The notes beneath the pieces were generated by a model, which had not been told where the DNA came from, made no database searches, and was given only the letters and a program-made list of their open reading frames with translations. The translations under genes and the position numbers were made by a program. This document shows, piece after piece, positions 12,598-41,198 of a DNA stretch of 64,000 bases (position 1 is the first letter of the stretch; each line of letters starts with the position of its first letter). Source of the stretch: Gammaproteobacteria bacterium (GTDB taxonomy: Bacteria; Pseudomonadota; Gammaproteobacteria; SZUA-140). The stretch covers positions 135,094 through 199,093 of the forward strand of contig JACREF010000011.1 of the NCBI GenBank assembly GCA_016218365.1. The letters run 5' to 3'.

Positions 12598-12993
12598 ATG
12601 GAGAGACTCGGCTTGCATCTTAATGATGAAACCCATTACAAGCTGCTGAAGTTACTGGAACAAAATCCCGAACTCAGTCAGCGTGAGTTGGCCAAGGAAC
12701 TGGGCATCAGTCTTGGCAAGGCCAACTATTGCCTGCAGGCCGTCATCGAGCGGGGCTGGGTCAAGGCCAAAAACTTTACCCACAGTTCCAACAAGCGTGC
12801 CTATGCCTACATCCTGACCCCCACGGGCATCGAACACAAGGCCAAGGTCACGCTGCGCTTTCTAAAGCACAAGGTTGCCGAATACGATGCCCTGCAGAAA
12901 TATATCGAGCAGCTGCGGCAAGAGGTTGACGACATGGAAACGGGTCTGCAGCCAACGCCACTGATCAATGTCGATCAGACTGAGCAACGTTAG
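12598..12993 (+). CDS. MarR-family EPS-associated transcriptional regulator
   Basis: The 131-residue protein carries a winged helix-turn-helix (LLKLLEQNPELSQRELAKELGIS at about 17-39, then KANYCLQAVIERGWVKAKNF). A C-terminal helix (AEYDALQKYIEQLRQEVDDM) suggests dimerisation by coiled coil. The sequence matches the small MarR-like proteins that occur at the head of exopolysaccharide loci in gammaproteobacteria. It is immediately followed by rfaH and the glycan cluster, so it probably controls that locus; its DNA site and effector are unknown. Confidence 0.9.
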   Translation: MERLGLHLNDETHYKLLKLLEQNPELSQRELAKELGISLGKANYCLQAVIERGWVKAKNFTHSSNKRAYAYILTPTGIEHKAKVTLRFLKHKVAEYDALQKYIEQLRQEVDDMETGLQPTPLINVDQTEQR

Positions 12994-13013: not shown

Positions 13014-13559
13014 ATGGATACTCACGTGCTTGAATCAATACAGCAGCCATTGACGCATCACCATCAGAAAGATCATTCCGGGGCATGGTATGCGATTCAG
13101 ACCAAACCCAGGCAGGAACGCCGTGCGCTGGAGCATCTCCAGAATCAGGGCTATGAGTGTCTGCTATTGCAGTGCCAGCGCGAGAGGGTGCGACAGGGTG
13201 CGCGAGCGCTCCTCGATGAGCCGTTGTTTCCGCGTTACCTGTTTATTCGCCTAAACTCGGTAGACAGCAACTGGGGGCCGATTCGCAGCACCCGAGGCGT
13301 CATCGGACTGGTCTGTTTTGGCGGGATCCCGGCTGTGTTGCCAGATGGTGTGGTCGAGGGGCTGGCGCAGCGCATGATCGTCAAGGAACATCTGTTTTGC
13401 GCCGGCGATCGGGTGCGGATCAGCGATGGACCGTTTGCCGGGCTGGAAGGGATCTTTGCCCAGGAGGATGGTATGGCCAGGGTGGTGATTCTGCTGGAGT
13501 TCATGCAACAACAGCAGCGACTGAGCATGCCGGTGGCAAATATCAGGCGGCTGGGGTGA
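13014..13559 (+). CDS. rfaH: RfaH-type transcription antiterminator (NusG paralogue)
   Basis: The 181-residue protein has the NusG N-terminal domain at about residues 22-115 (WYAIQTKPRQERRALEHL, DEPLFPRYLFIRL, IRSTRGVIGLVCFGG) and a KOW domain at about 125-180 (AGDRVRISDGPFAGLEGIF). The EPLFPRYLF and TRGV elements are those of RfaH rather than NusG. RfaH joins RNA polymerase at ops sites and lets it read through long, poorly expressed operons. An exact ops motif lies 95 bases downstream, before the glycan genes, so this copy probably acts in cis on the adjoining locus. It lies 20 bases after the MarR-type gene. Confidence 0.92.
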   Translation: MDTHVLESIQQPLTHHHQKDHSGAWYAIQTKPRQERRALEHLQNQGYECLLLQCQRERVRQGARALLDEPLFPRYLFIRLNSVDSNWGPIRSTRGVIGLVCFGGIPAVLPDGVVEGLAQRMIVKEHLFCAGDRVRISDGPFAGLEGIFAQEDGMARVVILLEFMQQQQRLSMPVANIRRLG

Positions 13560-13653
13560 GCTAGGCTTACCGATTGGCTGACTGCATCAATGTTTGTGGG
13601 TGCAAGTTAAACACATGTACTTACGTTTTTTGGAAATCAACGACTAATCCAAG

Positions 13654-13665
13654 GGCGGTAGCGTG
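13654..13665 (+). promoter_or_regulatory. ops element for RfaH recruitment
   Basis: The sequence GGCGGTAGCGTG is identical to the 12-base ops core known from E. coli rfa and capsule leaders. It lies on the + strand in the 354-bp leader between rfaH and the first glycan gene, exactly where RfaH loading is expected. The rest of this leader is occupied by a miniature inverted-repeat element (13731-13852). Confidence 0.85.
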
Positions 13666-13730
13666 TTCACAATCTGTTCAAAGCTATGGCGGCCACGGAC
13701 TAGCTTTGACAGATTTATAGTATTAGATGG

Positions 13731-13852
13731 GAATGGCACTTACTTAAGCGTTTTTGATAGGAGGTAGCCTGGGTTGAACGGAGTGAAACCCGGGTTTCGC
13801 TGTCGCTCAACCCAGGCTACTCGCCGGCTACCTCCTTAAGTAAGTGCCATTC
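13731..13852. mobile_element. Miniature inverted-repeat element family 1, copy b
   Basis: The 122-bp element has perfect 18-bp ends, GAATGGCACTTACTTAAG and its complement CTTAAGTAAGTGCCATTC. It is flanked by identical 11-bp direct repeats GTATTAGATGG (13720-13730 and 13853-13863). Its core is the GTAGCCTGGGTTGA palindrome in inverted orientation relative to copies a and c. It sits in the transcribed leader between the ops site and the first glycan gene, so the RNA there would form a strong hairpin. No coding capacity. Confidence 0.92.
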
Positions 13853-13913: not shown

Positions 13914-15731
13914 TTGATAAACTCTAGCACATCCTCTGACGGCCTCTATACCTTGCTGGCTCAGCTTTTTCGGCACATCAATCGTCGCCGTCGTTATCAA
14001 TTCATGCTTTTGCTCGGTTTGACACTGGCCAGTTCTTTTGCGGAGGTTGTCAGTCTTGGTGCCGTGGTGCCCTTCATCGGCATTCTTACTCAGCCGGAAA
14101 AAGTGTTTAACGCCCCGTTAATGTTGGGAATTGTTCAAGGACTGGATGTCACATCGGCAGCGGATTTGGTGTTGCCCATTATCGTAGCGTTTTCCGCGGC
14201 TGCGCTTGTTGCTGGTGGATTACGCCTATTGTTACTGTGGGCCAGTATCCGGCTTGCAAATGCCACTGGTACTGATTTTAGTGTTGAAGTCTATCGCCGA
14301 ACTCTATTTCAACCCTATCACGTACATGTAGCCCGCAGCAGCAGCGAAATCATCAGTGGAACGACACAAAAGGTGGGAACTGCCACAAGCGTGTTGACCT
14401 CTTTAGTAACCGTAGTCACGTCAGCAATCTTGTTTGCAGCAATTTTAGCGACATTAATTTTGATTAACCCCATCATAGCAATAATAGCTGTGATCAGTTT
14501 TGGAGTCGGCTATGGTTTAATTGCATGGAAGACACGTCGCCGGTTAAAAAACAATAGCCAGTGTATTGCGCAACAACAAACCCAGGTAGTTAAGTCTCTA
14601 CAGGAGGGGCTAGGGGCTATCCGAGATGTTCTACTAGATGGTACCCAGGAAATTTACTGCGACGCATATAAAAAAGCCGTTCAGCAGTTACAGAGGGCGA
14701 CTGGAGAAAATCAATACATTACCCTAGCTCCTCGATATGTCATGGAGGCCTTGGGTATGATATTAATTGCCACTTTCGCCTACGCCCTGAGCCACCAACC
14801 GGGTGGTATTGGAGCCGCGCTCCCGGTATTAGGGGCACTGGCCTTGGGGGCGCAACGGCTGATTCCTCTTTTGCAGCAACTCTATAGTAACTGGACATTT
14901 GTAGTCGGTAGCCAAGCTACACTGAGCGACGTGCTTAACTTGCTTGAACAACCTCTGCCAGACGATGCCTACACATCATTACCCACACCGCTTATGTTTC
15001 AGAACACAATTTGTTTCGAAAATTTGCGCTTCCAATATGGTAGCGACGGTCCTTGGGTATTGGATGGTATCAACCTGACCATATCTAAAGGAGCACGAAT
15101 CGGCTTCGTCGGCAGCACTGGTAGCGGTAAAAGCACAGCGCTGGATCTGCTGATGTCCCTGCTTGAACCGACTCAGGGAAGAATTCTTGTAGATGGACAG
15201 CCAATCAGTGGCAAACATAGACGAGCATGGCAGCGCACCATTGCCCACGTACCGCAAAGCATCTATCTTGCCGATGCCACTATCGCCGAGAACATTGCCT
15301 TTGGTGTGCCGTCAGATCAGATTGATCTTGATCTTGTCCGGCGTGTCGCCAAGCAGGCACAGATTGCCGAATTCATAGAAAGCCGCCTTGAGGGTTATGG
15401 TGCTTTCGTGGGCGAACGTGGTATCCGTCTCAGCGGTGGTCAGCGTCAGCGTATTGGCATCGCTAGGGCGCTCTATAAGCAGGCAACAGTGATCATATTT
15501 GACGAAGCCACGAGTGCGCTGGACAGCTCCACTGAAAAGGCGGTTATGAGCGCCATAGAAAATCTCGACCGTACGCTCACTATTCTAATCATTGCGCATC
15601 GAATAACCACTCTTCAGAATTGCGATATGATTGTACAGTTGGAGCATGGGCAAGTGGTGTCGCAAGACTCGTATGATCATTTTATGAAGATCAACCCTGG
15701 CTTCCAGGGCTTGAGGAAGGTCGAGGCGTGA
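13914..15731 (+). CDS. ABC exporter (PglK/MsbA-like), probable glycan flippase
   Basis: The 605-residue half-transporter has an N-terminal six-helix membrane domain (about 25-330) and a C-terminal ATPase. Walker A is GSTGSGKST at about 400, the signature LSGGQRQRIGIARAL at about 506, Walker B VIIFDEATSALD near 525 and the switch His in IIAHR near 562. The start of the membrane domain (LLLGLTLASSFAEVVSLGAVVPFI) resembles PglK, which flips lipid-linked oligosaccharides. No Wzx-type flippase is found in the window. The likely start is TTG 13914; a Met near residue 31 is an alternative. It is the first gene after the ops leader. Confidence 0.85.
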   Translation: MINSSTSSDGLYTLLAQLFRHINRRRRYQFMLLLGLTLASSFAEVVSLGAVVPFIGILTQPEKVFNAPLMLGIVQGLDVTSAADLVLPIIVAFSAAALVAGGLRLLLLWASIRLANATGTDFSVEVYRRTLFQPYHVHVARSSSEIISGTTQKVGTATSVLTSLVTVVTSAILFAAILATLILINPIIAIIAVISFGVGYGLIAWKTRRRLKNNSQCIAQQQTQVVKSLQEGLGAIRDVLLDGTQEIYCDAYKKAVQQLQRATGENQYITLAPRYVMEALGMILIATFAYALSHQPGGIGAALPVLGALALGAQRLIPLLQQLYSNWTFVVGSQATLSDVLNLLEQPLPDDAYTSLPTPLMFQNTICFENLRFQYGSDGPWVLDGINLTISKGARIGFVGSTGSGKSTALDLLMSLLEPTQGRILVDGQPISGKHRRAWQRTIAHVPQSIYLADATIAENIAFGVPSDQIDLDLVRRVAKQAQIAEFIESRLEGYGAFVGERGIRLSGGQRQRIGIARALYKQATVIIFDEATSALDSSTEKAVMSAIENLDRTLTILIIAHRITTLQNCDMIVQLEHGQVVSQDSYDHFMKINPGFQGLRKVEA

Positions 15732-15869: not shown

Positions 15870-16571
15870 ATGGCACTGAATACAAGTCTAGTGATTGGCC
15901 TCATTCCAGCACGTGGTGGCTCAAAGGGCGTGCCGAGAAAGAATATGAGAGTGATAGCGGGGAAACCGCTTGTTGATTTTAGTATTCTGGCTGCACAGCA
16001 ATCAAGCTACATCGATAGCGTGTATGTGTCATCGGATGATCAAGAGATTCTGCAGCACGCACATACCATGGGTGCAACAAGTGTTGTGAGACCGGATGAG
16101 TTTGCTTCAGATACGTCTTCTGCTGTTGAAGTGGTTAACCATTTTATTGGCATGCTGCCGAACGCCTTGCTTCAGGAAGATCCGTATATTGTTTACTTGC
16201 AGCCCACTTCGCCGTTTCGCACCGCCCGCCATATCGATGATGCACTGGAGCAGATGCTGGCCGCAAATGCACAATCGCTCGTGAGTGTGACGAAAACGGA
16301 GAAATCCCCATTCAAAATGTTTACCCTGGATGCAGAGGGATGTCTTCAGTCATTATTTGATGAAAAACTGTCAAATGCCCGGCGTCAGGACTTGCCTGCC
16401 GTGTTTGCCCCGAATGGGGCGATCTATGTATTTCAAGTGTCAGAATTCAAAGCGAGAAGAGGCTTTCCATCAAATGGGAGCCTCCCTTTTATAATGAACC
16501 AAGAAGATGGTATGGATATTGATACTGAAGATGATGTCCGTCATGCAGAAATGATTTTTGGAGTTAAGTAA
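15870..16571 (+). CDS. CMP-nonulosonate cytidylyltransferase (NeuA/LegF/PseF type)
   Basis: The 233-residue protein begins with LIPARGGSKGVPRKN (residues 11-25), the CTP-binding signature of CMP-sialate synthase-type enzymes, followed by KPLVDFSI, VSSDDQEIL and YLQPTSPFR. It activates a nine-carbon 2-keto sugar acid as its CMP derivative for transfer. The stop overlaps the start of the NeuB-type gene (TAATG). Length fits LegF/PseF enzymes rather than the larger NeuA with an esterase domain. Which nonulosonic acid is used cannot be read from this gene alone. Confidence 0.9.
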   Translation: MALNTSLVIGLIPARGGSKGVPRKNMRVIAGKPLVDFSILAAQQSSYIDSVYVSSDDQEILQHAHTMGATSVVRPDEFASDTSSAVEVVNHFIGMLPNALLQEDPYIVYLQPTSPFRTARHIDDALEQMLAANAQSLVSVTKTEKSPFKMFTLDAEGCLQSLFDEKLSNARRQDLPAVFAPNGAIYVFQVSEFKARRGFPSNGSLPFIMNQEDGMDIDTEDDVRHAEMIFGVK

Positions 16572-17611
16572 TGGCTGAATTCAAAATTTCAGATCGATTG
16601 ATTGGCGACAATCATCCCCCAGTGGTTATCGCAGAAATCGGTATCAACCATGAAGGATCGCTTGAGACAGCGATCCGGATGGTTGATGCTGCTATCGATG
16701 CCGGTGCTGAGATCATCAAGCATCAAACACACATTGTTGAAGACGAGATGTCTGATGAAGCAAAAGGTGTGATTCCTGGAAATGCCGATGTTTCAATCTA
16801 CGAGATCATGGCTCGCTGTGCTCTATCCGAGGCAGATGAGCGATCACTGATGAAGCATGTTCAACGACGTGGTGCGATTTTTATCAGCACACCATTCTCT
16901 CGTGCTGCGGTAGACAGACTGGTGGAATTTGATATTCCCGCCTTCAAGGTGGGATCCGGGGAGTGCAATAACTATCCGTTGATAAAACATATCGCGCGAT
17001 TTTGGAAGCCTGTCATCATCAGCACGGGCATGAATTCGATTGAATCAGTCAGGCCTTCGGTCGAAATTTTGCGCAAGGCAAAAATTCCGTATGCGCTGAT
17101 GCACTGTACAAATGTATATCCAACTCCGCCGGAACTGGTGCGGCTGGGAGCCATGTCCCAGCTCAAGGAAGCATTTCCGGATGCGGTAATCGGTTTATCA
17201 GATCACACTGCTTCAAATTATCCATGTCTGGGTTCGGTGGCACTTGGCGCATCCATACTGGAGCGCCACTTTACAGATCGGATGGATAGACCTGGCCCAG
17301 ACATTGTCTGTTCAATGGATCCCGCGGCATTAAAGGAATTGATCAAAGGTTCAAAAATCATCTTCGCTGCACGGGGCGGAGAAAAAGGCCCCGTTGAGGC
17401 CGAGGCGCCGACAATCGCCTTTGCGTTTGCGTCGGTTGTGGCCATTCGCGACATTGCACCCGGACAGAAGCTGAGCGAAGAAAACATCTGGGTCAAACGT
17501 CCGGGTGGTGGCGATTTTACGGTGCTGGACTACGAGGCGCTGCTCGGAAAAGTTGCAAGGAACCCCATTCATCGAGGCTTTCAGATAAAGAAATCAGATG
17601 TCCTTGGGTAA
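16571..17611 (+). CDS. Nonulosonic acid synthase (NeuB/LegI family)
   Basis: The 346-residue enzyme has an N-terminal TIM barrel (VVIAEIGINHEGSLETAIRM, AGAEIIKHQTHIVEDEM, FKVGSGECNNYPL, ISTGMNS, HCTNVYPTP, IGLSDHT) and a C-terminal antifreeze-like SAF domain from about 285 (IRDIAPGQKLSEENIWVKRPG). NeuB-family enzymes condense phosphoenolpyruvate with a 2-acetamido-mannose-type sugar to make sialic, legionaminic or related acids. EIGINHEG and HQTHIVEDEM fit the LegI branch better than NeuB proper. It overlaps its upstream cytidylyltransferase partner by one base. Confidence 0.92.
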   Translation: MAEFKISDRLIGDNHPPVVIAEIGINHEGSLETAIRMVDAAIDAGAEIIKHQTHIVEDEMSDEAKGVIPGNADVSIYEIMARCALSEADERSLMKHVQRRGAIFISTPFSRAAVDRLVEFDIPAFKVGSGECNNYPLIKHIARFWKPVIISTGMNSIESVRPSVEILRKAKIPYALMHCTNVYPTPPELVRLGAMSQLKEAFPDAVIGLSDHTASNYPCLGSVALGASILERHFTDRMDRPGPDIVCSMDPAALKELIKGSKIIFAARGGEKGPVEAEAPTIAFAFASVVAIRDIAPGQKLSEENIWVKRPGGGDFTVLDYEALLGKVARNPIHRGFQIKKSDVLG

Positions 17612-17617
17612 AAATCA

Positions 17618-18469
17618 TTGAGAGTCGTTGTTACAGGAGCATCAGGATTTGTTGGAAGTCGAGTCTTGCGATTGCTTTGTGAATGTTCACAGGTTGAACT
17701 AGTGCCAGTGACAAGGCAACAAATGCCTGATTGGTGCTGCGTCACTGATTATGCGCAATCACCATCCGGAGATGTGCTCATACATTTGGCCGAGAATTGT
17801 GATCGGGGACACGTTGCAAATCTCGGTACTGCATACGAAGAGAGTATCAGTGCATCACTCTCTGCACTGTTGGCGAAGGGCTATCATCGAATAGTTTATG
17901 CATCTTCAGCCGTTCTTTATGGCGATGAAGACACGCGCCCTCATTTGACAAGTGACCGTGTTGTGATAACGGATGCATATGCGCGAGTTAAATATCAATC
18001 GGAACTTGCTGTATTGGGCTTGCAGGGCGGAACAGTAGTACGCCTGGCCAATGTGTACGGGTACGGAATGTCCGAGAATAACGTAGTAAGCGCCATTCTT
18101 CGGCAGATACCTGGCACGGGAGCGCTGAAAGTTATGGATACGAGCCCGGTTCGCGACTTTATAAGTATTGATGATGTAGCTGAAGGTATTGTGGCGCTTG
18201 CACTTAGGCACAACCAAAATGGCAATACAGGTGGCCTGTATAATCTTAGCACTGGAATTGGTACATCCATCGGGGAACTGGCCAGCATAGCATTGGAGAT
18301 AGCAGAACAATCCGATCGGCGAGTCGAAACAAAGTCAAACACAAACAAGCAATCGAGTCTGGTACTTGAATATAGCCAAACCACACTTGACTGTGGGTGG
18401 AAGCCGAAGATAACGTTACATCAAGGGCTTACTGATCTGTTGCAAAAAAGGAAAGAACACGCATTATGA
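17618..18469 (+). CDS. NAD-dependent epimerase/dehydratase (extended SDR), possible 4-ketosugar reductase
   Basis: The 283-residue protein starts at TTG 17618, six bases after the NeuB-type stop. It has the Rossmann GASGFVGSR motif at residues 7-15 and the catalytic YARVK (Tyr-X3-Lys) near 123. IVYASSAVLYGDE and VRLANVYGYG are typical of sugar-nucleotide SDRs. It overlaps the NeuC-type gene (ATGA-like) and sits inside the nonulosonate block, where an aminotransferase would be expected in a legionaminate pathway. A ketosugar reductase or epimerase role is inferred. The short length suggests a reductase rather than GalE. Confidence 0.82.
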   Translation: MRVVVTGASGFVGSRVLRLLCECSQVELVPVTRQQMPDWCCVTDYAQSPSGDVLIHLAENCDRGHVANLGTAYEESISASLSALLAKGYHRIVYASSAVLYGDEDTRPHLTSDRVVITDAYARVKYQSELAVLGLQGGTVVRLANVYGYGMSENNVVSAILRQIPGTGALKVMDTSPVRDFISIDDVAEGIVALALRHNQNGNTGGLYNLSTGIGTSIGELASIALEIAEQSDRRVETKSNTNKQSSLVLEYSQTTLDCGWKPKITLHQGLTDLLQKRKEHAL

Positions 18470-19686
18470 AGCAACGCACAATCGCCGTATTTACAGGCAA
18501 CCGGGCTGAATATGGCCTGCAGTATCCAATACTACGGGCTATAGATCGCCATCCGGATTTGGATTACCGCTTATTGGTATCCGGAGCACATTTGGATCCA
18601 AATTATGGGAGGACTTTGGACGAAATCAGGGCGGACGGTTTCCATATTGATGCAGAAGTAATAATAGAAATGGATGCTGCATCACTTTACGGCACTGCGC
18701 AAGCGATTGGTTCAGGGATTTTGTCTATCAGTCGTGTATTAAATGAGTTGAAGCCAGACATGATGGTGGTCTATGCAGATCGTTTCGAGGGTTTGGCTGC
18801 TGTCATTGCTGCAAGCCAGATGAATATACCTACTGCACACATAGAGGGTGGCGACCTAACCGAAGGTGGAGCGCTAGATGACTCGGTGCGGCATGCTATG
18901 ACTAAACTTTCTCATCTTCACTTTACAACAAACCACCAGGCGACCAACCGCATCCTAGGGATGGGTGAAGAGTCTTGGAGAGTGCATACAGTGGGGTTCC
19001 CTGCGATTGATCTGATATCTGAGGGTCGATTTGCTAAGGAGGTAGAAATTGTCGAAAAATTGGGTCTGGATGTATCACGTCCTATCATGCTATTTACCCA
19101 ACATTCGGTGAGTACCGAATTTGATCAGGCAAGATTGCAACTGGTTCCTTCATTGGAAGCTATAGAGAAATTGGCAGCAGAGGGTGTGCAGACACTTCTT
19201 ACCTATCCTAACAATGATGCCGGAGGGCAGGCAATCATTGAAAGTCTAGAGGTGTTTAGGGCAAGGTGTATTCCCGGCACACAAATTCGGCCTTCTCTTG
19301 GTCGACATTTGTATCACGGTGTACTGGCACTCGCGCGCAATCAGTCAATAAGGGTAGCTTGTATAGGTAATTCATCTTCAGGTTTAAAAGAAACGCCTGC
19401 ATTTGGGTGTCCTACGGTGAATATCGGCTCACGCCAAGAAGGGAGATTGCGCGGACAGAATGTCGTTGATGCAGGCTATGATGCTGACGCTATCACGAAG
19501 GCGATGAAAAAATGCCTATTTGACGACAGTTTCAGATTGGTCTGCCGTGATGCAGAAAACCCATATTGGCTTGGAGATGCAGGCCCCAAGATTGCAGACG
19601 TATTGGCAACTGTTTCTCTGGATTCTCAAATCATTCGCAAACGCATGACGCTAAGAGGGGAAACCATGGATGGTTGGTTTAGATGA
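18466..19686 (+). CDS. Hydrolysing NDP-N-acetyl-sugar 2-epimerase (NeuC/LegG family)
   Basis: The 406-residue protein has the family start TGNRAEYG (residues 10-17), ADRFEGLAAVIAAS, HIEGGDLTEGGALDDSVRHAMTKL and GNSSSGLKETPAFG. NeuC/LegG enzymes remove the nucleotide and invert C2 of a GlcNAc-type sugar, giving a ManNAc-type substrate for the NeuB-family synthase. It follows the SDR with a 4-base overlap and overlaps the next gene by 4 bases, so it is translationally coupled. GDP versus UDP substrate cannot be read directly, but the adjacent PtmE-like gene points to GDP. Confidence 0.9.
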   Translation: MKQRTIAVFTGNRAEYGLQYPILRAIDRHPDLDYRLLVSGAHLDPNYGRTLDEIRADGFHIDAEVIIEMDAASLYGTAQAIGSGILSISRVLNELKPDMMVVYADRFEGLAAVIAASQMNIPTAHIEGGDLTEGGALDDSVRHAMTKLSHLHFTTNHQATNRILGMGEESWRVHTVGFPAIDLISEGRFAKEVEIVEKLGLDVSRPIMLFTQHSVSTEFDQARLQLVPSLEAIEKLAAEGVQTLLTYPNNDAGGQAIIESLEVFRARCIPGTQIRPSLGRHLYHGVLALARNQSIRVACIGNSSSGLKETPAFGCPTVNIGSRQEGRLRGQNVVDAGYDADAITKAMKKCLFDDSFRLVCRDAENPYWLGDAGPKIADVLATVSLDSQIIRKRMTLRGETMDGWFR

Positions 19687-20747
19687 TAGAGAAACCGCTT
19701 CGACCGGAAGCAAAACTGATAGACGCTGTTCGCGCTATTGAGATCAGCCGCAGGCGTATGGCGGTGGTTGTTGACGCAGACAATCGTCTGGTGGGAACAC
19801 TTACAGATGGCGATATCCGTCGCCATTTACTTGCCGGAGGCAGTTTGGATGCGCAAGTAGCCAAGGCTATGAACCCCAATCCGCTTTCAGCTCAGGAGGG
19901 GTCTTCAGATGGATATATCAAGGACTTGATGCGCCATAAGAATGTGGTAGCCATCCCGCTGTTGGATCAGGATGGCAAGTATCTTCGATTGGTTCATTTG
20001 ATGGACCTTGAGCAAGATGAAGGCGTATCCGACAAAGCAGTAGGGTTCAGCTTTTCGGTAATCATGGCGGGTGGCGAGGGCACAAGGCTGAGACCTCTGA
20101 CGGAGACGATACCAAAGCCTATGGTTGAGATTGGCGGCGTTCCCTTGCTCGAGCGTCAGATCCAAAGGCTGGTTAAGATCGGAATACCGCGTGTTTATAT
20201 TTCCGTCAATTATTTGGGTCATATTATTGAAGAATATTTCGGTAATGGGGATGGGTTCGGAATCGAAGTTTGCTATTTAAGAGAACAAGAAAAGCTGGGA
20301 ACTGGCGGAGCACTTACGCTTTTACCGGAACAGCCTACCGAACCAATCATCGTGATGAACGGGGACATTCTGACCAACTCGGATCTTGATGGTTTCTATC
20401 GCTTTCACCAAGCGCATGATGCCTATATTACTGTGGCTGCAATAGATCATCGGGTTCATATTCCCTATGGAGTAATTCGCGCTGAAGGGCCATTTATTAC
20501 TGGGCTGATTGAAAAGCCTTCTGAGCGATTTTTGTGCAATGCAGGTATTTATGCACTTTCACCTCAAGTGTTGAATTACATGCCGAAGAACGCACATAGC
20601 AATATGACAGATCTTGTTGAAATTTGTCTTTCTAAGCAATTGCCCATTGCCGTGTTTCCAGTGCACGAATATTGGAATGACATTGGCACACCTGATGATT
20701 TAGAAAAAGCCCGCGCTCATTTCTCAAAAATGGAGATCAATAAATGA
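19683..20747 (+). CDS. CBS-domain nucleotidyltransferase (PtmE-like, GDP-hexosamine route)
   Basis: The 354-residue fusion has two CBS repeats at about residues 5-120 (LVGTLTDGDIRRHLL, NVVAIPLLDQDGKYLRL) followed by a sugar-1-phosphate nucleotidyltransferase (GGEGTRLRPLTETIPKPM from residue 130, VNYLGHIIEEYFG, MNGDIL). This architecture is that of Campylobacter PtmE, a glucosamine-1-phosphate guanylyltransferase of the legionaminate pathway. Its overlaps with LegG-like and LegB-like genes support a GDP-linked pathway. Substrate is inferred by architecture and context. Confidence 0.88.
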   Translation: MIEKPLRPEAKLIDAVRAIEISRRRMAVVVDADNRLVGTLTDGDIRRHLLAGGSLDAQVAKAMNPNPLSAQEGSSDGYIKDLMRHKNVVAIPLLDQDGKYLRLVHLMDLEQDEGVSDKAVGFSFSVIMAGGEGTRLRPLTETIPKPMVEIGGVPLLERQIQRLVKIGIPRVYISVNYLGHIIEEYFGNGDGFGIEVCYLREQEKLGTGGALTLLPEQPTEPIIVMNGDILTNSDLDGFYRFHQAHDAYITVAAIDHRVHIPYGVIRAEGPFITGLIEKPSERFLCNAGIYALSPQVLNYMPKNAHSNMTDLVEICLSKQLPIAVFPVHEYWNDIGTPDDLEKARAHFSKMEINK

Positions 20748-21745
20748 GTGAATCACTCAAAGGAAAAAATGTTTTCGTTACAGGCGCAGACGGATTTATC
20801 GGCAGTCACCTAGTAGAGATATTAGTGAATGCCGGGGCAAAAGTTCGAGCTTTGGTTTACTACAACTCGTGGAATGCTAGCGGTTGGCTGAAAGACGCAC
20901 CCGAATCAACTCTTAACCAGGTCGAATTGTATATTGGCGATATTCGTGATTCAGAACGCATGCGCCAAGGCGTGAAAGGATGTGATTATGTATTTCATTT
21001 ATCTAGCCTCATTGCCATTCCTTACAGCTATGATGCGCCGAGATCGTATGTGGAAACCAATGTAGTAGGTGCGCTGAATATTCTTAACGCATGCAGAGAG
21101 AGTGATACTCTTACCCGATTAGTGCATGTATCCACTTCTGAAGTATATGGCTCTGCGCAAACGGTTCCGATTTCGGAAGAGCACCCGTTGGTTGGCCAAT
21201 CGCCATATTCTGCGAGCAAGATTGCTGCTGACAAGATGGCTGAGAGCTTCTACCTGTCATTCGGCTTGCCAGTCGTGACCGCCAGACCATTTAATACCTT
21301 TGGTCCACGCCAAACTGCGCGTGCAGTCATACCAACCTTAGCCAGCCAGTTGATTGCGGGAAAACAGCAGCTCAAGCTGGGATCGCTGCATCCGACGCGC
21401 GACTTCAACTTTGCTACGGACACTGCGCGTGGCATGGTGGCATTGGCACTTTGTGCTGCTGCGGAGGGGCAGGTGGTAAACATCGGCTCCGGTGAAGAAT
21501 GGTCAATTGCGAAAACTCTGGAAATGCTTTGTGAGATAATAGGGCGCAATCCGAGCTTCATCACTGATGATGAGCGCATCCGCCCAGAAAAAAGTGAAGT
21601 GAATCGACTGCTGGCGGATAACTCCAAGATTCATCAATTAACGGGATGGAAGAGTGAGGTGCCCTTTCGGGAGGGTCTTGAGAAGACCGTTCGCTGGATT
21701 GAGAAAAATATGGATTACTTCGATGTGGATCGCTATACAAAATGA
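20744..21745 (+). CDS. legB: NAD-dependent 4,6-dehydratase (LegB-like)
   Basis: The 333-residue extended SDR has GADGFIGSH at residues 14-22, VHVSTSEVYGSAQTVP and the catalytic YSASK (Tyr-X3-Lys). FNTFGPRQTARAVIPT and LHPTRDFNFATDTARG are typical of LegB-type GDP-GlcNAc 4,6-dehydratases. The enzyme would make a 4-keto-6-deoxy sugar nucleotide, the branch point toward legionaminic-like acids. It overlaps both neighbours by 4 bases. No LegC-type aminotransferase or LegH-type acetyltransferase follows, which is unusual. Confidence 0.88.
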   Translation: MSESLKGKNVFVTGADGFIGSHLVEILVNAGAKVRALVYYNSWNASGWLKDAPESTLNQVELYIGDIRDSERMRQGVKGCDYVFHLSSLIAIPYSYDAPRSYVETNVVGALNILNACRESDTLTRLVHVSTSEVYGSAQTVPISEEHPLVGQSPYSASKIAADKMAESFYLSFGLPVVTARPFNTFGPRQTARAVIPTLASQLIAGKQQLKLGSLHPTRDFNFATDTARGMVALALCAAAEGQVVNIGSGEEWSIAKTLEMLCEIIGRNPSFITDDERIRPEKSEVNRLLADNSKIHQLTGWKSEVPFREGLEKTVRWIEKNMDYFDVDRYTK

Positions 21746-22488
21746 GAGTGATTGCACGGCTTGATGTTAAAAATCAGTTTGTCATCAAGGGAATCCATTT
21801 AGAAGGATTGCGCAAAGTTGGCGATCCCAACCAATTAGCTAAAGCCTATTACGAGGCAGGAATCGATGAAATAGTGTTCATTGATGCTGTTGCTAGTTTA
21901 TATAACCGGAATAATTTATTCTCGGTGATTCAAAAGGCGTCAGAAGAGGTGTTCGTGCCGATCACCATCGGAGGGGGGCTGCGCAGTCTGTCCGATGTTG
22001 AACAAGCCTTGGATGCTGGTGCAGATAAGGTTGCACTAAATACAGCTGTAATTCGTGAACCCGGATTGATTGAGAACGTGGCAAAACAATATGGTAGCCA
22101 ATGTGTTGTAGCTTCCGTGCAAGCCAAGCGCACAGCAAATGGGTGGGAGGCATACATGGAGACTGGGCGAGAAAGGACGGGGGTACAAGTTTTGGATTGG
22201 GTCCGTCGCTTGCAAGACCTGGGTGCAGGTGAATTGCTCCTTACGTCGGTGGATCAGGAGGGGACTAAAACTGGTTTTGATGTTCCTTTGGTGCAAGCAG
22301 TGAACAATGCGATATCGATCCCGGTCATAGTCAGCGGTGGTTATGGGCAACCGAAACACATCGCGGAGCTTCTTGAAGTTACGGAGCCAAGCGGATTATG
22401 TTTTGCTTCGGTATTGCATTACAAGACAGCCACCGTGGATGAATTGCGACAAATGATAGCTCTTGCAGGAACGACCGGAATTAAATGA
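21742..22488 (+). CDS. HisF2/AglZ-like acetamidino-modification protein (HisF paralogue)
   Basis: The 248-residue TIM-barrel protein resembles HisF (RLDVKNQFVIKG, EIVFIDAVAS, ITIGGGLRS, LLTSVDQEGTKTGFD). In biosynthetic HisF two aspartates, D11 and D130 in Thermotoga, are essential. Asp8 here matches D11, but the D130 position is Gln127 (SVQAKR instead of IDAKR). With the neighbouring HisH-like gene and a sugar amidotransferase it forms the triad known to convert N-acetyl groups to acetamidino groups on O-antigen sugars. It probably channels or produces ammonia with HisH2 rather than making histidine. Confidence 0.88.
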   Translation: MRVIARLDVKNQFVIKGIHLEGLRKVGDPNQLAKAYYEAGIDEIVFIDAVASLYNRNNLFSVIQKASEEVFVPITIGGGLRSLSDVEQALDAGADKVALNTAVIREPGLIENVAKQYGSQCVVASVQAKRTANGWEAYMETGRERTGVQVLDWVRRLQDLGAGELLLTSVDQEGTKTGFDVPLVQAVNNAISIPVIVSGGYGQPKHIAELLEVTEPSGLCFASVLHYKTATVDELRQMIALAGTTGIK

Positions 22489-23114
22489 AGAAGATCGTCG
22501 TTCTGAGTTATGGGCTTGGCAATGTGCGTAGCGTAGGCAATGCATTACGCGCGATTGGCGCTCATGTAGAAGTTTCGCATGCTGAACACAGCATCATGCA
22601 GGCTGACGGCCTTATCATTCCTGGCGTTGGGGCATTCCCGCATGGGATGGCAAACCTAGTTGAGTCAGGCTTGGTTGATGTGATACGAAAATACATTGCT
22701 TTCGGCCGCCCGGTATTGGGAATTTGTTTGGGCATGCAGTTGCTGTTCGACAAAGGCACGGAGTTTGTTCCAACTGATGGGTTGGGCTTGATTACAGGCT
22801 CGGTCGATATCATTCCAGTTTCAACAGAGGTGGGCCGATTACCTCACATAGCATGGTCTACGATTTGTCAAACTGAGCAAGGGCGGCAAAAAATGTTTGC
22901 TGGACTGACCGATAGCGAGATGCGTTTCTATTTTGTGCATAGTTACGCTGCAATGGGCGTTAAGCCGGATAACATCAGCGCAACAGTAACTTATCTTGGT
23001 AACACCATCGTTGCAGCTGTGCAAAGCTGTAATGTATGGGGTACTCAATTTCATCCGGAGAAAAGTGGCCCAAGTGGACTGCATTTCTTAAGAAATTTCG
23101 TTAATAATTGTTAA
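22485..23114 (+). CDS. HisH2 glutamine amidotransferase subunit (acetamidino modification)
   Basis: The 209-residue class-I glutamine amidotransferase has the nucleophile Cys81 in GICLGMQLLF and the His/Glu pair in GTQFHPEKSG near residue 190, so the triad is intact. The start IVVLSYGLGNVRSVGNAL matches HisH. It overlaps the HisF2 gene by 4 bases and is followed by the amidotransferase gene. It should release ammonia from glutamine for the acetamidino-forming reaction. A histidine-pathway role is unlikely because no other his genes are nearby. Confidence 0.9.
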   Translation: MKKIVVLSYGLGNVRSVGNALRAIGAHVEVSHAEHSIMQADGLIIPGVGAFPHGMANLVESGLVDVIRKYIAFGRPVLGICLGMQLLFDKGTEFVPTDGLGLITGSVDIIPVSTEVGRLPHIAWSTICQTEQGRQKMFAGLTDSEMRFYFVHSYAAMGVKPDNISATVTYLGNTIVAAVQSCNVWGTQFHPEKSGPSGLHFLRNFVNNC

Positions 23115-23129
23115 GTATTGGGGATGGCA

Positions 23130-24332
23130 ATGAGCAAGGCCTATTTTGGACTGCCTGAAGAAGTGGTTTTTTGTAAACACTGCGTTATTTCAAATCAACG
23201 ACCAAGTTCATCTGTTGAATTTAAGCACAAGCACGATGAGAAGAAGGCAACGATAGGTTTTGACGCTCAAGGTGTATGCGATGCCTGCCGGTACCATGAA
23301 ACAAAGGACAAACAGATCAGTTGGGAAAAGCGCGAACAGGCGCTGATCAAATTGCTTGATCAACATCGTCGCAATGATGGTGGCTATGATGTGATTATTC
23401 CTGGTAGTGGGGGAAAGGACAGTGCCTACACCTCTCACATACTCAAATACAAATATGGCATGAACCCGCTTACAGTCACTTGGGCGCCACATAAATACAC
23501 CGAGATCGGCTGGAAGAATTTTGAGAGCTGGGTTCACATAGGCGGGCTGGATAACATCCTGTTTACACCAAACGGAAAGCTTCATCGCTATTTGACACAG
23601 CAAGCCTTCTTAAACTTGCTCCATCCTTTCCAACCTTTCATCGTTGGCCAGCGCATTATCGGTCCGGCGATGGCGGCGAAATTTGGTGTCAAGCTGGTTA
23701 TGTATGGTGAAAATCAGGCAGAGTATGGCAACAACCCTGATGACAACTATGTTCCAACCATGGATCGTAAGTTCTTCTCTGTGGGCGATCCGGAAGAGAT
23801 GATACTGGGTGGAAAGACTGTTAAGGAAATTATTTCTGAAGGGAAATTCAAACTCAATGATTTCGCACCCTACATCCCGCCGAGTGCAGGTTTTCTTGAG
23901 AGAAAAGGCGTTGAGGTGCACTACCTTGGTTACTACCTTAAATGGGATCCGCAGGAGTGCTACTACTATGCAGTCGAAAATACCGGCTTCCAGGCGAACA
24001 GTGAGAGAACAGAAGGGACGTACTCCAAATACAGCAGCATTGACGACCAGATAGACATGTTTCACTACTTCACAACGCTTATCAAATTTGGTATCGGCCG
24101 TGCCACATATGATGCGGCACAAGAAATTAGAAACGGAAAGATCACGCGCGAGGAAGGCGTGCATCTAGTGCACAAATATGACCAGGAATTCCCGCAGAAA
24201 TATTTCAAAGAGTTTCTGGAATACATCGATATATCGGAAAAAATATTCTTTGAGATAGTGGACCGTTTTCGTTCACCGCATCTATGGGCGCATGTGGACG
24301 GGAAATGGGTGCTGAGGCGCAGGGTAGAATGA
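23130..24332 (+). CDS. N-acetyl sugar amidotransferase (WbpG/PseA-like)
   Basis: The protein belongs to the N-acetyl sugar amidotransferase family. It has an ATP pyrophosphatase P-loop (PGSGGKDSAYT; SGGKDS at about 93-98) and two CXXC pairs, FCKHC near 14-18 and VCDAC near 49-53, typical of the family's zinc site. ATG 23130 is chosen (400 aa) because GGGG lies about 7 bases upstream; TTG 23118 is an alternative. With HisH2 and HisF2 it would convert an acetamido group to acetamidino on the glycan's amino sugar or nonulosonic acid, as in Pseudomonas and Legionella-type pathways. Its stop overlaps the next gene. Confidence 0.9.
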   Translation: MSKAYFGLPEEVVFCKHCVISNQRPSSSVEFKHKHDEKKATIGFDAQGVCDACRYHETKDKQISWEKREQALIKLLDQHRRNDGGYDVIIPGSGGKDSAYTSHILKYKYGMNPLTVTWAPHKYTEIGWKNFESWVHIGGLDNILFTPNGKLHRYLTQQAFLNLLHPFQPFIVGQRIIGPAMAAKFGVKLVMYGENQAEYGNNPDDNYVPTMDRKFFSVGDPEEMILGGKTVKEIISEGKFKLNDFAPYIPPSAGFLERKGVEVHYLGYYLKWDPQECYYYAVENTGFQANSERTEGTYSKYSSIDDQIDMFHYFTTLIKFGIGRATYDAAQEIRNGKITREEGVHLVHKYDQEFPQKYFKEFLEYIDISEKIFFEIVDRFRSPHLWAHVDGKWVLRRRVE

Positions 24333-25135
24333 GCATCAGGAATATCGCGGCGAATGTCTTTACAGGCAAACTTGAGAAGTTCAGTAATCGCCACGAAGGT
24401 GAGACCTGTTACATATTCGGTGACGGCCCATCGATCAAGTGGTTTGACTTTAGCGAATTCAGCAATCATCCAGCTATTTGTTGCGGAATGATTCCATTTC
24501 ATAAAGACTTCGACAAACTGGACGTCAGATATATCGCGCTGGTTGAGCCTTGGTTGTTTGTGCCCAAGATTTTTCAGCCAAAGATATTGCATTGCTTAAG
24601 GCAGATAGCAGCCGAATATAAATGCCGTATCGCCAGCCTGCCTGACAAAGAGTTCTTTGTTAGTCTGTCTAACCTGTTCTCTCTTTCAGGGAAAAACATC
24701 AACTACGTTTATCGGAACTTACCAAATTCCAGAAATCAGACTGATATGGATCTCAATCAGTTTGATTGCTTTGGAGGATCATTTCATGCTTCGCTTTCTT
24801 TGGCGTATTACATGGGCTTTAAGAAGATATATCTTGTTGGTTTTGACGCATGGACTATCCAACCGGCACGCACATTGCGGTGGTATGAATTGGGAGACGG
24901 AGAATATTTCAATCCCACCAACTTTGCGCTGGAATATCTAAAGGTACTTAAACAAGAGATCGACATTTATACAATTTCAAAAGATGGCAAATCATGCAAT
25001 GTGAAAAATATTAGTTATGCGTCTTTCACTGGCAAGCAACCAGAATACACAGAAAATTACGAGCTGCTCAGCGGGCATATGCTAAAGGTGCTTGGCACTT
25101 GTCATGAGTACAAAATTATCTCCACTGGCAATTGA
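24329..25135 (+). CDS. DUF115/MptE-like protein, putative nonulosonate (sialyl-type) transferase
   Basis: The 268-residue protein starts at ATG 24329 in an ATGA overlap. It has a nucleotide-binding-like start (YIFGDGPSIKWFDF near 31-44) and GGSFHASLSLAYYMGFKKIYLVGFD near 155. These match the DUF115/MptE-like fold shared with Maf flagellin glycosyltransferases and distantly with GT42 sialyltransferases. Placement right after nonulosonate and acetamidino genes suggests it transfers the CMP-activated sugar. This is an inference from fold motifs and context; other transferases in the locus could do it instead. Confidence 0.6.
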   Translation: MSIRNIAANVFTGKLEKFSNRHEGETCYIFGDGPSIKWFDFSEFSNHPAICCGMIPFHKDFDKLDVRYIALVEPWLFVPKIFQPKILHCLRQIAAEYKCRIASLPDKEFFVSLSNLFSLSGKNINYVYRNLPNSRNQTDMDLNQFDCFGGSFHASLSLAYYMGFKKIYLVGFDAWTIQPARTLRWYELGDGEYFNPTNFALEYLKVLKQEIDIYTISKDGKSCNVKNISYASFTGKQPEYTENYELLSGHMLKVLGTCHEYKIISTGN

Positions 25136-25820
25136 TAAATATATGGAGAGGCGAATGAAGAAGGATTCCGTACTTCTGCCTTCAGTGATGCCGGTTGACA
25201 GAGAACAATGGGGGCAGCAATTACACCTGTGCAATTTCGTCAATGCCTACTACCAATACGAAGATATTCAAAGCTGCGGCAACGTAAAAAAGATATTGAT
25301 AATTGGGCCCGGTCAGGGACTGGATACAAACATATTCAAGTGGAGGGGATTTGAAGTCACGACGTTCGACATCGACGAGACTTTTAGACCGGATGTCATT
25401 GGCAGCGCACATGACCTGAGCATGTTCGGGGAAAAAAATTTCGATGTGATCATTGCATCGCATGTTCTGGAACACCTTCCCATTCCATATCTGGATCAAT
25501 GTTTGGCTGAGTTTGCTAGGGTGAGTGCGTACTCGATCATCTATCTTCCGGTGGCAGGCAGACATTTTCAATTCCAAATCAAGCTGGACGTCAAAGGAAT
25601 TACCCTGTCGTTCATGTTCGACCTGTTCAATTTTCTGCATAAGCCGGATGGTGTGACGGCACGTTATTGCCAGGGAATGCATTATTGGGAAATGGGGATG
25701 AGGGGCTTTACCTCGGGCGCCTTGGCGAGAAGATTTTCGAATCATTTTAGTATCGTAAAGAATTATAGAAATAAAGACTGGAATCCCAGCTATAACTGGA
25801 TTCTAAAATCAAAAGCCTGA
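25104..25820 (+). CDS. Class I SAM-dependent methyltransferase
   Basis: The 238-residue protein has methyltransferase motif I as ILIIGPGQGLD near 65-75, an acidic residue after strand 2 (TTFDIDE) and motif II/III FDVIIASHVLEHLP near 112-125. ATG 25104 overlaps the upstream stop; internal Met codons at 25143 and 25155 are possible starts. It lies in the glycan locus and probably methylates a sugar hydroxyl or carboxyl; the target is unknown. Confidence 0.78.
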   Translation: MSTKLSPLAIDKYMERRMKKDSVLLPSVMPVDREQWGQQLHLCNFVNAYYQYEDIQSCGNVKKILIIGPGQGLDTNIFKWRGFEVTTFDIDETFRPDVIGSAHDLSMFGEKNFDVIIASHVLEHLPIPYLDQCLAEFARVSAYSIIYLPVAGRHFQFQIKLDVKGITLSFMFDLFNFLHKPDGVTARYCQGMHYWEMGMRGFTSGALARRFSNHFSIVKNYRNKDWNPSYNWILKSKA

Positions 25821-25849
25821 TTGCTTTGGTCGAAAATTAAAGAATATCA

Positions 25850-26905
25850 ATGAAGATAATCTATTCATTCGGGAAGGTCGGTTTTGAGGCCGATTATTGG
25901 GGGCGCGAGATTGCAGCTGCCTCCACTTCTGAATATACATTCATGCCGTTCAACCATGCTGGATATGAAAAATCCAGCTCATTTACGCGCGCCCAATTGC
26001 TGGACAATCTCTACTTTCAGAATAATGCCGGTCTGGCGCGGCTGTATGCGGATATAGAAGTCAAGATTCGGACAGAGCAGGCCGACGTATTGATGGTAGA
26101 TACATACAATCCTTACCATCCGGACTATCTTCGCAAGCTGGGTATCTACAAAGTGCTGCGGATAAACGATGGGCCTATGGCGGCCTATGACCGTGACTTT
26201 GCCTATCTGCATGCTTTCGACCATGTGCTATACCATTCTCCTGCGTACAGCAAAGATATGCAGATCGATGAAAAGCTGCGCTATTGCGGGGCGAAGCGAA
26301 TCGATTTTTGGCCGCTCGGGTCGTTTGATGCGCTATGTGATCGCAGCATGACGGAAGATGACATCAAATTAAGGAGTAGAGATATCGATATCGCATTCGT
26401 TGGTGCACTTGCGCCGAATAAGATGCCTGTCATCGCAGCGGTAAAGAGGGCGTTTGGACCACGGATGAAATTGTATGGTTTGACTAACCTGAAACGGAAC
26501 GTGTATTTCAATATGAAATTCGGCTTTCCGGGATGGGTAAAATCGCTTCCATTTGAACAATACGTTCCGCTCTATCAGAGAACGAAAATCGGGATCAATG
26601 TGCACAATCGAGGTGACTATACAGTGGGTGGTTATCGATTGTTTGATCTACCCGCAAACGGTGTGATGCAAATATCAGACGGTGGCCCCTACTTGGAGAG
26701 TTTCTTTGAAGTCGGAAAAGAGGTTGAATTATACAGAAATACTGACGAGCTTATAGACAAGATCAAGTATTACTTAGCACACGAGGCCGAACGCAAGCAG
26801 ATCGCGCTCAATGGCTACAAGCGAGTGAATAGGGATTATCGGATGGCGCACTTGCTACAAAAGTCTGGGGCGCTGATTAAGGAAGGATTTTATGATAAGC
26901 ACTGA
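25850..26905 (+). CDS. CgeB-like glycosyltransferase
   Basis: The 351-residue protein has a GT-B pattern: an N-terminal domain with ADVLMVDTYNPYHPDYL and RINDGPMAAY, and a C-terminal nucleotide-sugar region (IAFVGALAPNKMPVI, GINVHNRGDYTVGGYRLFDLPANGVMQISDGGPYLESFF). The C-terminal half matches CgeB/Glyco_trans_1_2 proteins. It would add a sugar to the growing lipid-linked repeat in the cytoplasm. The donor and linkage cannot be read from the sequence. Confidence 0.75.
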   Translation: MKIIYSFGKVGFEADYWGREIAAASTSEYTFMPFNHAGYEKSSSFTRAQLLDNLYFQNNAGLARLYADIEVKIRTEQADVLMVDTYNPYHPDYLRKLGIYKVLRINDGPMAAYDRDFAYLHAFDHVLYHSPAYSKDMQIDEKLRYCGAKRIDFWPLGSFDALCDRSMTEDDIKLRSRDIDIAFVGALAPNKMPVIAAVKRAFGPRMKLYGLTNLKRNVYFNMKFGFPGWVKSLPFEQYVPLYQRTKIGINVHNRGDYTVGGYRLFDLPANGVMQISDGGPYLESFFEVGKEVELYRNTDELIDKIKYYLAHEAERKQIALNGYKRVNRDYRMAHLLQKSGALIKEGFYDKH

Positions 26906-26915
26906 GCGATAACTA

Positions 26916-28196
26916 ATGTATACCATTTTGTTCCTTTCCGCAGTAATTATCGCCTTAGTTTATTTGATATATATGCAGCCAGCTAGCCACAGAACCATAT
27001 TTGAGCCAGGCGTTATTATTCTCGGGCTATTTTCACTTTGTTATCTTGCGCCGGCTCTCGCAATTCACATCGGTGCAAATATTCTATCTGTTGACGATAT
27101 TGAGAATGTCGAATCTATCTCACTATATGGTTTATTGTTCGTGGTTTCATTCGTATTTTTTTATATTGCAACTAAAATAGTTAGACGTGTTCGGGTGTTT
27201 CCAGAGGTGAATATAAGCATTGGTTGGTCTCCTGGTAAATGTTTTATTGGAGTTATTTCTACATTTTTGATAATTAAAACTATATTTCTGTATTATGGGG
27301 TGGGCGACTCTGGTGATTATGCTGGGCAATATTTTGAAAGAGCATCGATGCCGCAAGCGGTCAGGCAGGCTGTAAATATTTTGAGTGCAATACAGTGGGT
27401 TCTTGTATATTTGTTGTTAGCGACTAGCATTTCTTCATCGAATCTAAAATACGCCATGTTTTTTGTATGGGCAGCTTTTTTTGTTTATTTTGTTGATATG
27501 TGGATTACGAATTCACGCTCAATATTCGTTATGTATTCACTTGTATTCATAGTAACGTACATGTTTTACAACAGATCCATTGGATTAAGAAAGGAGATTA
27601 TCTATGCTACATTATTTATAACCATAATGGGACTGTTTGCATATAAGCGTGCCAATTTTGATGGTGAGATTGATGTTAATGTTATAGATATTTTGATTCC
27701 ATCAGAATTTATTGCTATTTATCAAAATGCACTACATTTGATGTCAATATCGGGCTCTTCTGATTTTGTTCAACCACCTGGTAGCTCTTATCTGCAATCC
27801 CTTATTGCATTTATTCCTAAGCAGATTAATGATGAAAAGTGGGATTTGGCAAGCTGGTATGTTGGAGAATATTTTCCTGGATATGCAGCGCAAGGCGGAG
27901 GGCTTGCTTTCGGTATTATTCCAGAGGCCTTGATAAATTGGGGTATAATCAGTATTGTATTTCAGGCGTTCATAGTTTCTGTTGTATTTAGAGTTTCATA
28001 TGTGGCAGCTTGTAGAACGAGATCTCGCTCGCCAAATATCTGGCTATTGTTCTACCTGTTCTGTATTTCTAATATTTATAATGTAATTAGGTCTCATTCA
28101 TTTTCCATCTTTAATGGTATAGCTCTTGGTTTTATTGTACCCTTCTTAATATTATTTCTGATTAGCCGAATTAGAGTTGCGCCACGTAAATTATAA
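26916..28196 (+). CDS. wzy: Wzy-type oligosaccharide repeat-unit polymerase
   Basis: The 426-residue protein is strongly hydrophobic with about ten or more membrane segments and a large periplasmic loop around residues 250-330 (PSEFIAIYQNALHLMSISG, QPPGSSYLQSLIAFIPKQ), as in Wzy/O-antigen polymerases. The gene is markedly more A/T-rich than the flanking housekeeping genes, typical for polymerases in exchanged glycan loci. It would join repeat units on the periplasmic face. Identity rests on topology and context since Wzy sequences are poorly conserved. Confidence 0.78.
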   Translation: MYTILFLSAVIIALVYLIYMQPASHRTIFEPGVIILGLFSLCYLAPALAIHIGANILSVDDIENVESISLYGLLFVVSFVFFYIATKIVRRVRVFPEVNISIGWSPGKCFIGVISTFLIIKTIFLYYGVGDSGDYAGQYFERASMPQAVRQAVNILSAIQWVLVYLLLATSISSSNLKYAMFFVWAAFFVYFVDMWITNSRSIFVMYSLVFIVTYMFYNRSIGLRKEIIYATLFITIMGLFAYKRANFDGEIDVNVIDILIPSEFIAIYQNALHLMSISGSSDFVQPPGSSYLQSLIAFIPKQINDEKWDLASWYVGEYFPGYAAQGGGLAFGIIPEALINWGIISIVFQAFIVSVVFRVSYVAACRTRSRSPNIWLLFYLFCISNIYNVIRSHSFSIFNGIALGFIVPFLILFLISRIRVAPRKL

Positions 28197-28198
28197 AA

Positions 28199-31170: not shown

Positions 31171-31179
31171 GTAAATATT

Positions 31180-32163: not shown

Positions 32164-32269
32164 GATATAAGTCAGAGTTTTTCAGTCGGACGATGTTTGT
32201 CACAGAATAGCGCACCAATTTGATAATTTGTGAAGAATATATTCAGATGATAATAATATATTCAGTAAA

Positions 32270-33430: not shown

Positions 33431-33464
33431 TTTACTGAATTTTAGTTTCATGAGGTCATAATTA

Positions 33465-37878: not shown

Positions 37879-37937
37879 TCATTACCGAAATAAGTTGTGA
37901 TGCTAGCCATGTTGAAAAGATTGGCGCGAGATATCCA

Positions 37938-39708: not shown

Positions 39709-39767
39709 AATCCAATTTGGCATGAATCAGTCGTACTTTCTGTTACCAAGTGTGTAGGTGTATTGAA

Positions 39768-39895
39768 GGAGTCTCTGATTAATTCGAATTGTCGTCATGC
39801 CCGCGGTAGAGAGCACCCATAAATATTTTGTAATATCTGGATTCCCGCTGTCGCGGGAATGACGGCCATAGTAAAAAATGGTAGTGATGTCGAGT
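39768..39895. mobile_element. Miniature inverted-repeat element family 2, copy 1 (3' end worn)
   Basis: The left end GGAGTCTCTGATTAATTCG and the internal palindrome (GTCATGCCCGCG ... TCGCGGGAATGACGGCC) match the copies at 41049, 46055 and 52104, but the right terminal repeat is lost after GACGGCCATAGTAAAAAATG. It occupies most of the 223-bp gap between the WbpV- and WbpL-like genes. Confidence 0.75.
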
Positions 39896-39931
39896 TGAGA
39901 TCAAACTATATTTTATAACGAGAGTACGTAA

Positions 39932-41177: not shown

Positions 41178-41198
41178 TTAAAACCCAGCACCGCTCAA

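What the first reader, a model, noticed from the sequence alone, without database searches (positions are those of the whole stretch)
13014..13665. RfaH gene with an exact ops site directly ahead of its glycan locus
An intact rfaH-type gene is followed 95 bases later by GGCGGTAGCGTG, identical to the E. coli ops core. In enterobacteria rfaH is usually unlinked from its targets. Here regulator, loading site and about 26 kb of co-directional glycan genes form a self-contained unit that could transfer as a block.
Basis: partly seen in the sequence, partly recalled or inferred. Interest (0 to 1): 0.65.

Follow-up and report, generated by a model that had tools for sequence, protein, structure and literature searches.

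The report
RfaH beside its own ops-controlled locus
A bacterium carries a gene for an RNA-polymerase helper protein (RfaH) directly in front of the exact DNA landing site and the long sugar-coat gene cluster it probably helps transcribe; this linked layout, with a conserved RNA hairpin before the landing site, turns out to be common in related bacteria and suggests how such linked regulators find their target.

Summary
Confirmed. ORF 13014-13559 is an RfaH (TIGR01955, 164.5 bits, cut-off 144.5). GGCGGTAGCGTG at 13654-13665 is the only exact ops in the 2.26 Mb genome and precedes ~27 kb of co-directional, AT-rich glycan genes. The layout is not unique. Of 72 relatives' rfaH loci, 33 carry GGCGGTAGCGT nearby, always in sense orientation (permuted motifs: mean 0.13). 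In 42 non-redundant sites, 83% have a >=5-bp stem ending 0-1 nt before ops (29% when arms are exchanged), and the window's subgroup shows compensatory changes. Best reading: a dedicated, cis-encoded RfaH that loads at its own operon's ops leader and suppresses polarity. Linked RfaHs are known (Wang 2020), but their recruitment was called unknown. The window's RfaH keeps the E. coli contacts K10, R16, H20, Q24 and R73, whereas 28 of 33 ops-linked RfaHs in the survey lack R73 and 28 lack H20. Function is inferred, not shown; an AlphaFold test of fold-switching was uninformative by its control. New variant of a known kind.

The parts
12598..12993 (+). MarR-family EPS-associated regulator (MarR_EPS), 20 bp upstream of rfaH, probably co-transcribed
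   Evidence: TIGR04176 159.9 bits against cut-off 88; also beside rfaH and/or ops in relatives
13014..13559 (+). rfaH: NusG-paralogue elongation factor, 181 aa
   Evidence: TIGR01955 164.5 bits, cut-off 144.5; only such gene besides the weak NusG-like match in the genome; keeps K10, R16, H20, Q24, R73, E48, F130, R138 of E. coli RfaH, with R23 to N and I93 to V
13629..13653 (+). Leader RNA hairpin, arms TTTGGA (13629-13634) / TCCAAG (13648-13653), 13-nt loop, abutting ops; JUMPstart-like
   Evidence: Same position and loop length in Marinobacterium and Pseudomonas MYb185 with compensatory changes; alone it folds weakly, -2.7 kcal/mol
13654..13665 (+). ops element GGCGGTAGCGTG, proposed RfaH loading/pause site
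   Evidence: Exact match, unique in the genome; conserved at +43 to +195 from the rfaH stop in relatives with the same gene order
13731..13852 (.). MITE inserted between ops and the first glycan gene, with an 11-bp target duplication GTATTAGATGG (13720-13730 and 13853-13863)
   Evidence: About 30 copies in the genome; target duplication; transcript folds at -67.6 kcal/mol, z -8.8
13914..15731 (+). First gene of the target block: PglK/MsbA-type ABC transporter
   Evidence: 34-36% identical to the ABC transporter after rfaH-ops in Marinobacterium
15870..40960 (+). Rest of the proposed target block: nonulosonate-type sugar synthesis (PseF/NeuB/NeuC/LegB-like), WbuZ/HisF + amidotransferase, glycosyltransferases, Asn synthase-like, carbamoyltransferase, MBOAT, epimerase, WecA/WbpL-type transferase
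   Evidence: GC 41-49% against 60-65% outside

Best explanation
A cis-encoded, apparently dedicated RfaH-ops antitermination module. Transcription (start site not identified; most simply upstream of marR) passes through rfaH into the leader. RNA polymerase pauses at ops. The hairpin immediately upstream ends 11-12 nt before the expected pause nucleotide U11 and may lengthen the pause. The ops bases exposed on the non-template strand recruit RfaH through its K10/H20/R73 patch. RfaH then stays on RNA polymerase, excludes NusG/Rho and helps ribosomes load, so the ~27 kb AT-rich glycan block is transcribed to its end. MarR_EPS probably controls initiation. Shown: genes, motif, uniqueness, conservation, covariation. 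Inferred: promoter, pausing, RfaH loading, polarity effect, role of MarR.
For: RfaH equivalog over cut-off with E. coli ops-contact residues retained. Exact, genome-unique ops in sense orientation. ops near 33 of 72 relatives' rfaH loci, none antisense. Same order rfaH - hairpin/ops - ABC transporter in Marinobacterium. Hairpin abutting ops in 83% of 42 sites against 29% with exchanged arms and compensatory changes. E. coli's rfb JUMPstart stem sits in the same place. No terminator was found between rfaH and ops. Long AT-rich target, typical of RfaH targets (PMC7593976). Best full-length fold match is recruited RfaH at ops, 8phk.
Against: No expression data. No promoter was recognised by a simple scan. 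R23 is N. The window hairpin alone is no more stable than shuffles. A MITE separates ops from the first gene. Many related linked RfaHs have no exact ops in the stretch examined.
Confidence: 0.8

Rival explanations
1. The linked RfaH is constitutively active ('monomorphic', beta-barrel CTD) and acts in cis without needing ops, as proposed for adjacent RfaHs in PMC13015549; the ops is only a pause site or a relic.
For: AlphaFold2 models its CTD as a beta-barrel; the preprint links genomic adjacency with monomorphic RfaH.
Against: With the same alignment AlphaFold2 also gives a beta-barrel for an enterobacterial RfaH 96% identical to the E. coli protein, whose free form has an alpha CTD, so the model does not discriminate. 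The preprint says its monomorphic orthologues lack several ops-binding residues; this one keeps most of them plus E48, F130 and R138. ops and its hairpin are conserved.
Confidence: 0.15
2. The ops match is a chance 12-mer and the RfaH acts elsewhere.
For: One occurrence per genome is about what chance gives for such a short motif.
Against: Position probability about 1e-4; conserved position, orientation and hairpin in relatives; no other hairpin-ops site in the genome.
Confidence: 0.03
3. The leader works mainly as an RNA-structure regulator (JUMPstart RNA) read by another factor, RfaH being secondary.
For: Covarying stem abutting ops; a JUMPstart stem-loop was described by Weinberg 2010.
Against: The most conserved block is ops itself; stem sequence varies freely; rfaH is physically linked.
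Confidence: 0.07

Closest known systems
E. coli RfaH-ops system (rfb, rfa, hly, tra)
   Same: RfaH equivalog, exact ops, long AT-rich surface-glycan target, stem in the same place before ops at rfb
   Different: E. [quoted passage not shown] here rfaH is next to the genome's only exact ops
Cis-encoded NusG paralogues UpxY, TaA, LoaP, ActX
   Same: Regulator encoded at or in its target operon
   Different: UpxY and LoaP models score below cut-off; those have other or unknown recruitment signals, here an exact ops
RfaH clusters CL2-CL8 of Wang et al. 2020 (PMC7593976), CL4 with an HTH regulator
   Same: RfaH beside envelope genes; CL4-like pairing with an HTH gene
   Different: That paper names no recruitment site for them; cluster assignment of this protein was not tested
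JUMPstart RNA, Rfam RF01707
   Same: Stem-loop directly before ops in polysaccharide leaders
   Different: RF01707 does not match the window even at E 5, nor 11 relatives at gathering score

Membership tests
RfaH (TIGR01955) | Curated model cut-off 144.5 bits | tested here: met
   164.5 bits
RfaH (TIGR01955) | ops-contact residues K10, R16, H20, R23, Q24, R73 | tested here: met
   5 of 6 identical; R23 is N
RfaH (TIGR01955) | Autoinhibition residues E48, I93, F130 and partner R138 | tested here: met
   E, V, F, R; I93V is conservative
RfaH (TIGR01955) | CTD fold switch alpha to beta | tested here: inconclusive
   AlphaFold2 gives beta for this protein and for an enterobacterial control alike
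RfaH (TIGR01955) | Suppresses polarity of distal genes via ops | not testable with these tools
   Needs RNA-seq or a reporter assay
JUMPstart RNA (RF01707) | Covariance-model gathering score 35 bits | tested here: not met
   No match at the site
JUMPstart-like leader (works like) | Stem ending 0-1 nt before ops | tested here: met
   Window 13629-13653; conserved with covariation
UpxY / LoaP | Curated cut-offs 100 / 125 bits | tested here: not met
   66.4 / 43.3 bits
MarR_EPS (TIGR04176) | Cut-off 88 bits | tested here: met
   159.9 bits

The most novel reading that the evidence does not exclude
Many cis-encoded RfaHs across Gammaproteobacteria (with a few beta-proteobacterial cases) are recruited by a composite leader signal - a covarying RNA hairpin 11-12 nt from the pause nucleotide plus an invariant ops - and most of them read the same ops without the R73 and H20 contacts considered essential in E. 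coli. Linkage therefore does not mean ops-independence, and ops may be conserved first as a hairpin-assisted pause and only second as a protein-DNA contact.
Probability: 0.35. Interest if true: 0.65.

Novelty: new variant of a known kind. Interest (0 to 1): 0.45.

Why it matters
How RfaH-type regulators encoded within or beside their targets are recruited is stated as unknown (PMC7593976), and a recent preprint ties adjacency to ops-independence (PMC13015549). This locus and its relatives offer natural cis units with an exact ops and a pause-positioned hairpin. Some keep and most lack the E. coli ops contacts, which makes both questions directly testable.

Tried and rejected
The search for related loci with the single protein found nothing, and the first alignment was too diverse. 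Rfam at the leader gave only chance miRNA matches from hairpins. Promoter scan found nothing. AlphaFold fold-switch test rejected after its own control failed. Folding energy of the hairpin alone is not significant; the exchange and covariation tests were used instead. No association of R73 or H20 with presence of ops (Fisher p 0.26 and 0.76). One search was my mistake: a made-up 18-residue query, without meaning. The genome-wide ops count is near the control level and was not used as evidence. The flanking PLD gene is present in 15 of 20 family genomes, but no clean empty site was established. In one search row L099 is misaligned at its 5' arm, which only lowers the pairing count.

Full report
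WHAT IS THERE. ORF 13014-13559 encodes a 181-residue protein that passes the curated RfaH equivalog model TIGR01955 with 164.5 bits (cut-off 144.5), while UpxY, NusG and LoaP models stay below their cut-offs. The only other TIGR01955 hit in the genome scores 45.9 bits and is presumably NusG. GGCGGTAGCGTG lies at 13654-13665, same strand, 94 bases after the rfaH stop. GGCGGTAGCNTG occurs nowhere else in the 2.26 Mb assembly. One hit per genome is about chance; its place is not. Permuted 11-mers occur at about 3.7e-7 per base in comparable loci, so a sense hit in the 354-base gap has a probability near 1e-4. Of 22 GGCGGTAGC cores in the genome only one other continues GT (C9:72219), without an upstream hairpin.

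NEIGHBOURS. Twenty bases upstream of rfaH is a MarR_EPS gene (TIGR04176, 159.9 against 88 bits). Downstream, sense-strand ORFs run from 13914 to 40960: a PglK/MsbA-type ABC transporter; PseF-, NeuB-, NeuC- and LegB-like enzymes, several just under or above their curated cut-offs; WbuZ/HisF with an amidotransferase; glycosyltransferases; asparagine synthase-like, carbamoyltransferase, MBOAT, epimerase; and a WecA/WbpL-type transferase. This points to a surface glycan with nonulosonate-type sugars. GC falls from 62-65% to 41-49% across exactly this block; rfaH is 58%, marR 53%.

A HAIRPIN BEFORE ops. TTTGGA (13629-13634) can pair with TCCAAG (13648-13653), which touches ops. In Marinobacterium and Pseudomonas sp. 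MYb185, ops follows rfaH by 50-107 bases with a stem of the same length, loop and position but other letters (CAGGA/TCCTG, CGGGA/TCTCG, CAAGA/TCTTG); a Moraxellaceae site is the same with a loop one base longer. On eight such sites 92.5% of cells pair, 5 cells change on both sides (0 of 500 shuffles reach this), and slid versions pair in 23-58%. Over 42 non-redundant ops sites near rfaH genes, 83% have a stem of 5 or more pairs (GU allowed) ending 0-1 nt before ops. The figure is 29% (sd 6, maximum 48) when arms are exchanged between sites, and 19-36% for slid positions. The mean-stem excess is strongest at offset 1 and gone by offset 4. The E. coli K-12 rfb leader has a 5-bp stem in the same place. 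Weinberg et al. 2010 noted a JUMPstart stem-loop (PMC2864571), but Rfam RF01707 does not match the window. The window stem alone folds weakly, so the evidence is comparative. The stem's end lies 11-12 nt before U11, where E. coli RNA polymerase pauses at ops (PMC11001881); from general knowledge this is the spacing of the his pause hairpin. That paper describes the ops-paused complex as distinct from a hairpin-stabilised one, so an assisting role of the native leader hairpin is open, not shown.

HOW WIDESPREAD. 74 of 369 genomes of the class hold a relative at E 1e-20. Of 72 other loci read, 33 have GGCGGTAGCGT within 1.5 kb upstream or 3.5 kb downstream of rfaH, none antisense; 400 permuted motifs average 0.13 loci, maximum 2. 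Orders vary: MarR-rfaH-ops (as here; L060, L087, L119), rfaH-MarR-ops, rfaH-ops-MarR, ops-MarR-rfaH. Eleven of 29 other MarR_EPS stretches carry ops: 5 in plus orientation and 6 on the complement, the latter all from minus-strand MarR hits; only 4 of the 29 contain rfaH. In Marinobacterium the order rfaH - hairpin/ops - ABC transporter is kept, the transporters being 34-36% identical to the window's.

RESIDUES. E. coli RfaH reads ops mainly with K10, H20, R23 and R73 (PMC5995543). The window protein keeps K10, R16, H20, Q24 and R73 (R23 is N), and E48, F130 and R138 of the autoinhibition set with I93V (set from PMC7593976). By contrast, of 33 ops-linked RfaHs including the window's, 28 lack R73 and 28 lack H20, although the neighbouring ops is identical. 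Either they read it differently, or another factor does; each of those genomes showed one strong RfaH match.

FOLD SWITCH. AlphaFold2 with 40 homologues gives a beta CTD, and the best full-length PDB match is recruited RfaH at ops, 8phk. The same alignment gives a beta CTD for an enterobacterial RfaH too, whose E. coli counterpart is alpha when free (2OUG; general knowledge and PMC6370827), so nothing follows about autoinhibition.

MITE. A 122-bp inverted-repeat element, flanked by an 11-bp duplication and present in about 30 copies, sits between ops and the first gene. Its transcript folds at -67.6 kcal/mol (z -8.8), a strong leader structure lying after the proposed RfaH loading point.

READING. 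Best explanation: a dedicated cis-encoded RfaH-ops module driving its adjacent glycan block. Linked RfaHs are known (PMC7593976), their recruitment is stated as unknown, and a 2026 preprint associates adjacency with ops-independent, monomorphic proteins that lack ops contacts (PMC13015549). This locus combines adjacency with an intact ops, hairpin and contact residues. Function is inferred throughout. Transfer as a block is plausible (patchy presence in the family; low GC) but no boundaries were found.

Noticed in passing
window 13731-13852; other copies near 8950-9053, 54603-54724 and 61166-61236: MITE family with terminal repeat GAATGGCACTTACTTAAG and an inner GGAGGTAGCCTGGG inverted repeat, about 30 near-identical copies in the genome; the copy here has an 11-bp target duplication.
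   Followed up: partly
window 41000-47200: Repeat-rich stretch with a DUF4143/AAA_14 gene (minus strand) and a HipA-like gene between the glycan block and a WbpM-like gene (47294-49201); looks like a later insertion into the glycan locus.
   Followed up: no
L270, L273, L276, L279, L280, L285, L286, L289, L290, L294, L297: MarR_EPS genes carry an ops within about 1.5 kb in 11 of 29 relatives, mostly without rfaH nearby: MarR_EPS and ops may be functionally coupled.
   Followed up: partly
L060-L129: Most RfaHs encoded beside an exact ops lack the R73 and H20 contacts that E. coli RfaH needs.
   Followed up: partly
genome contig C18:48710-49469: Partial second copy (94% and 83% identical pieces) of the PLD-family gene at window 11132-12292.
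   Followed up: no
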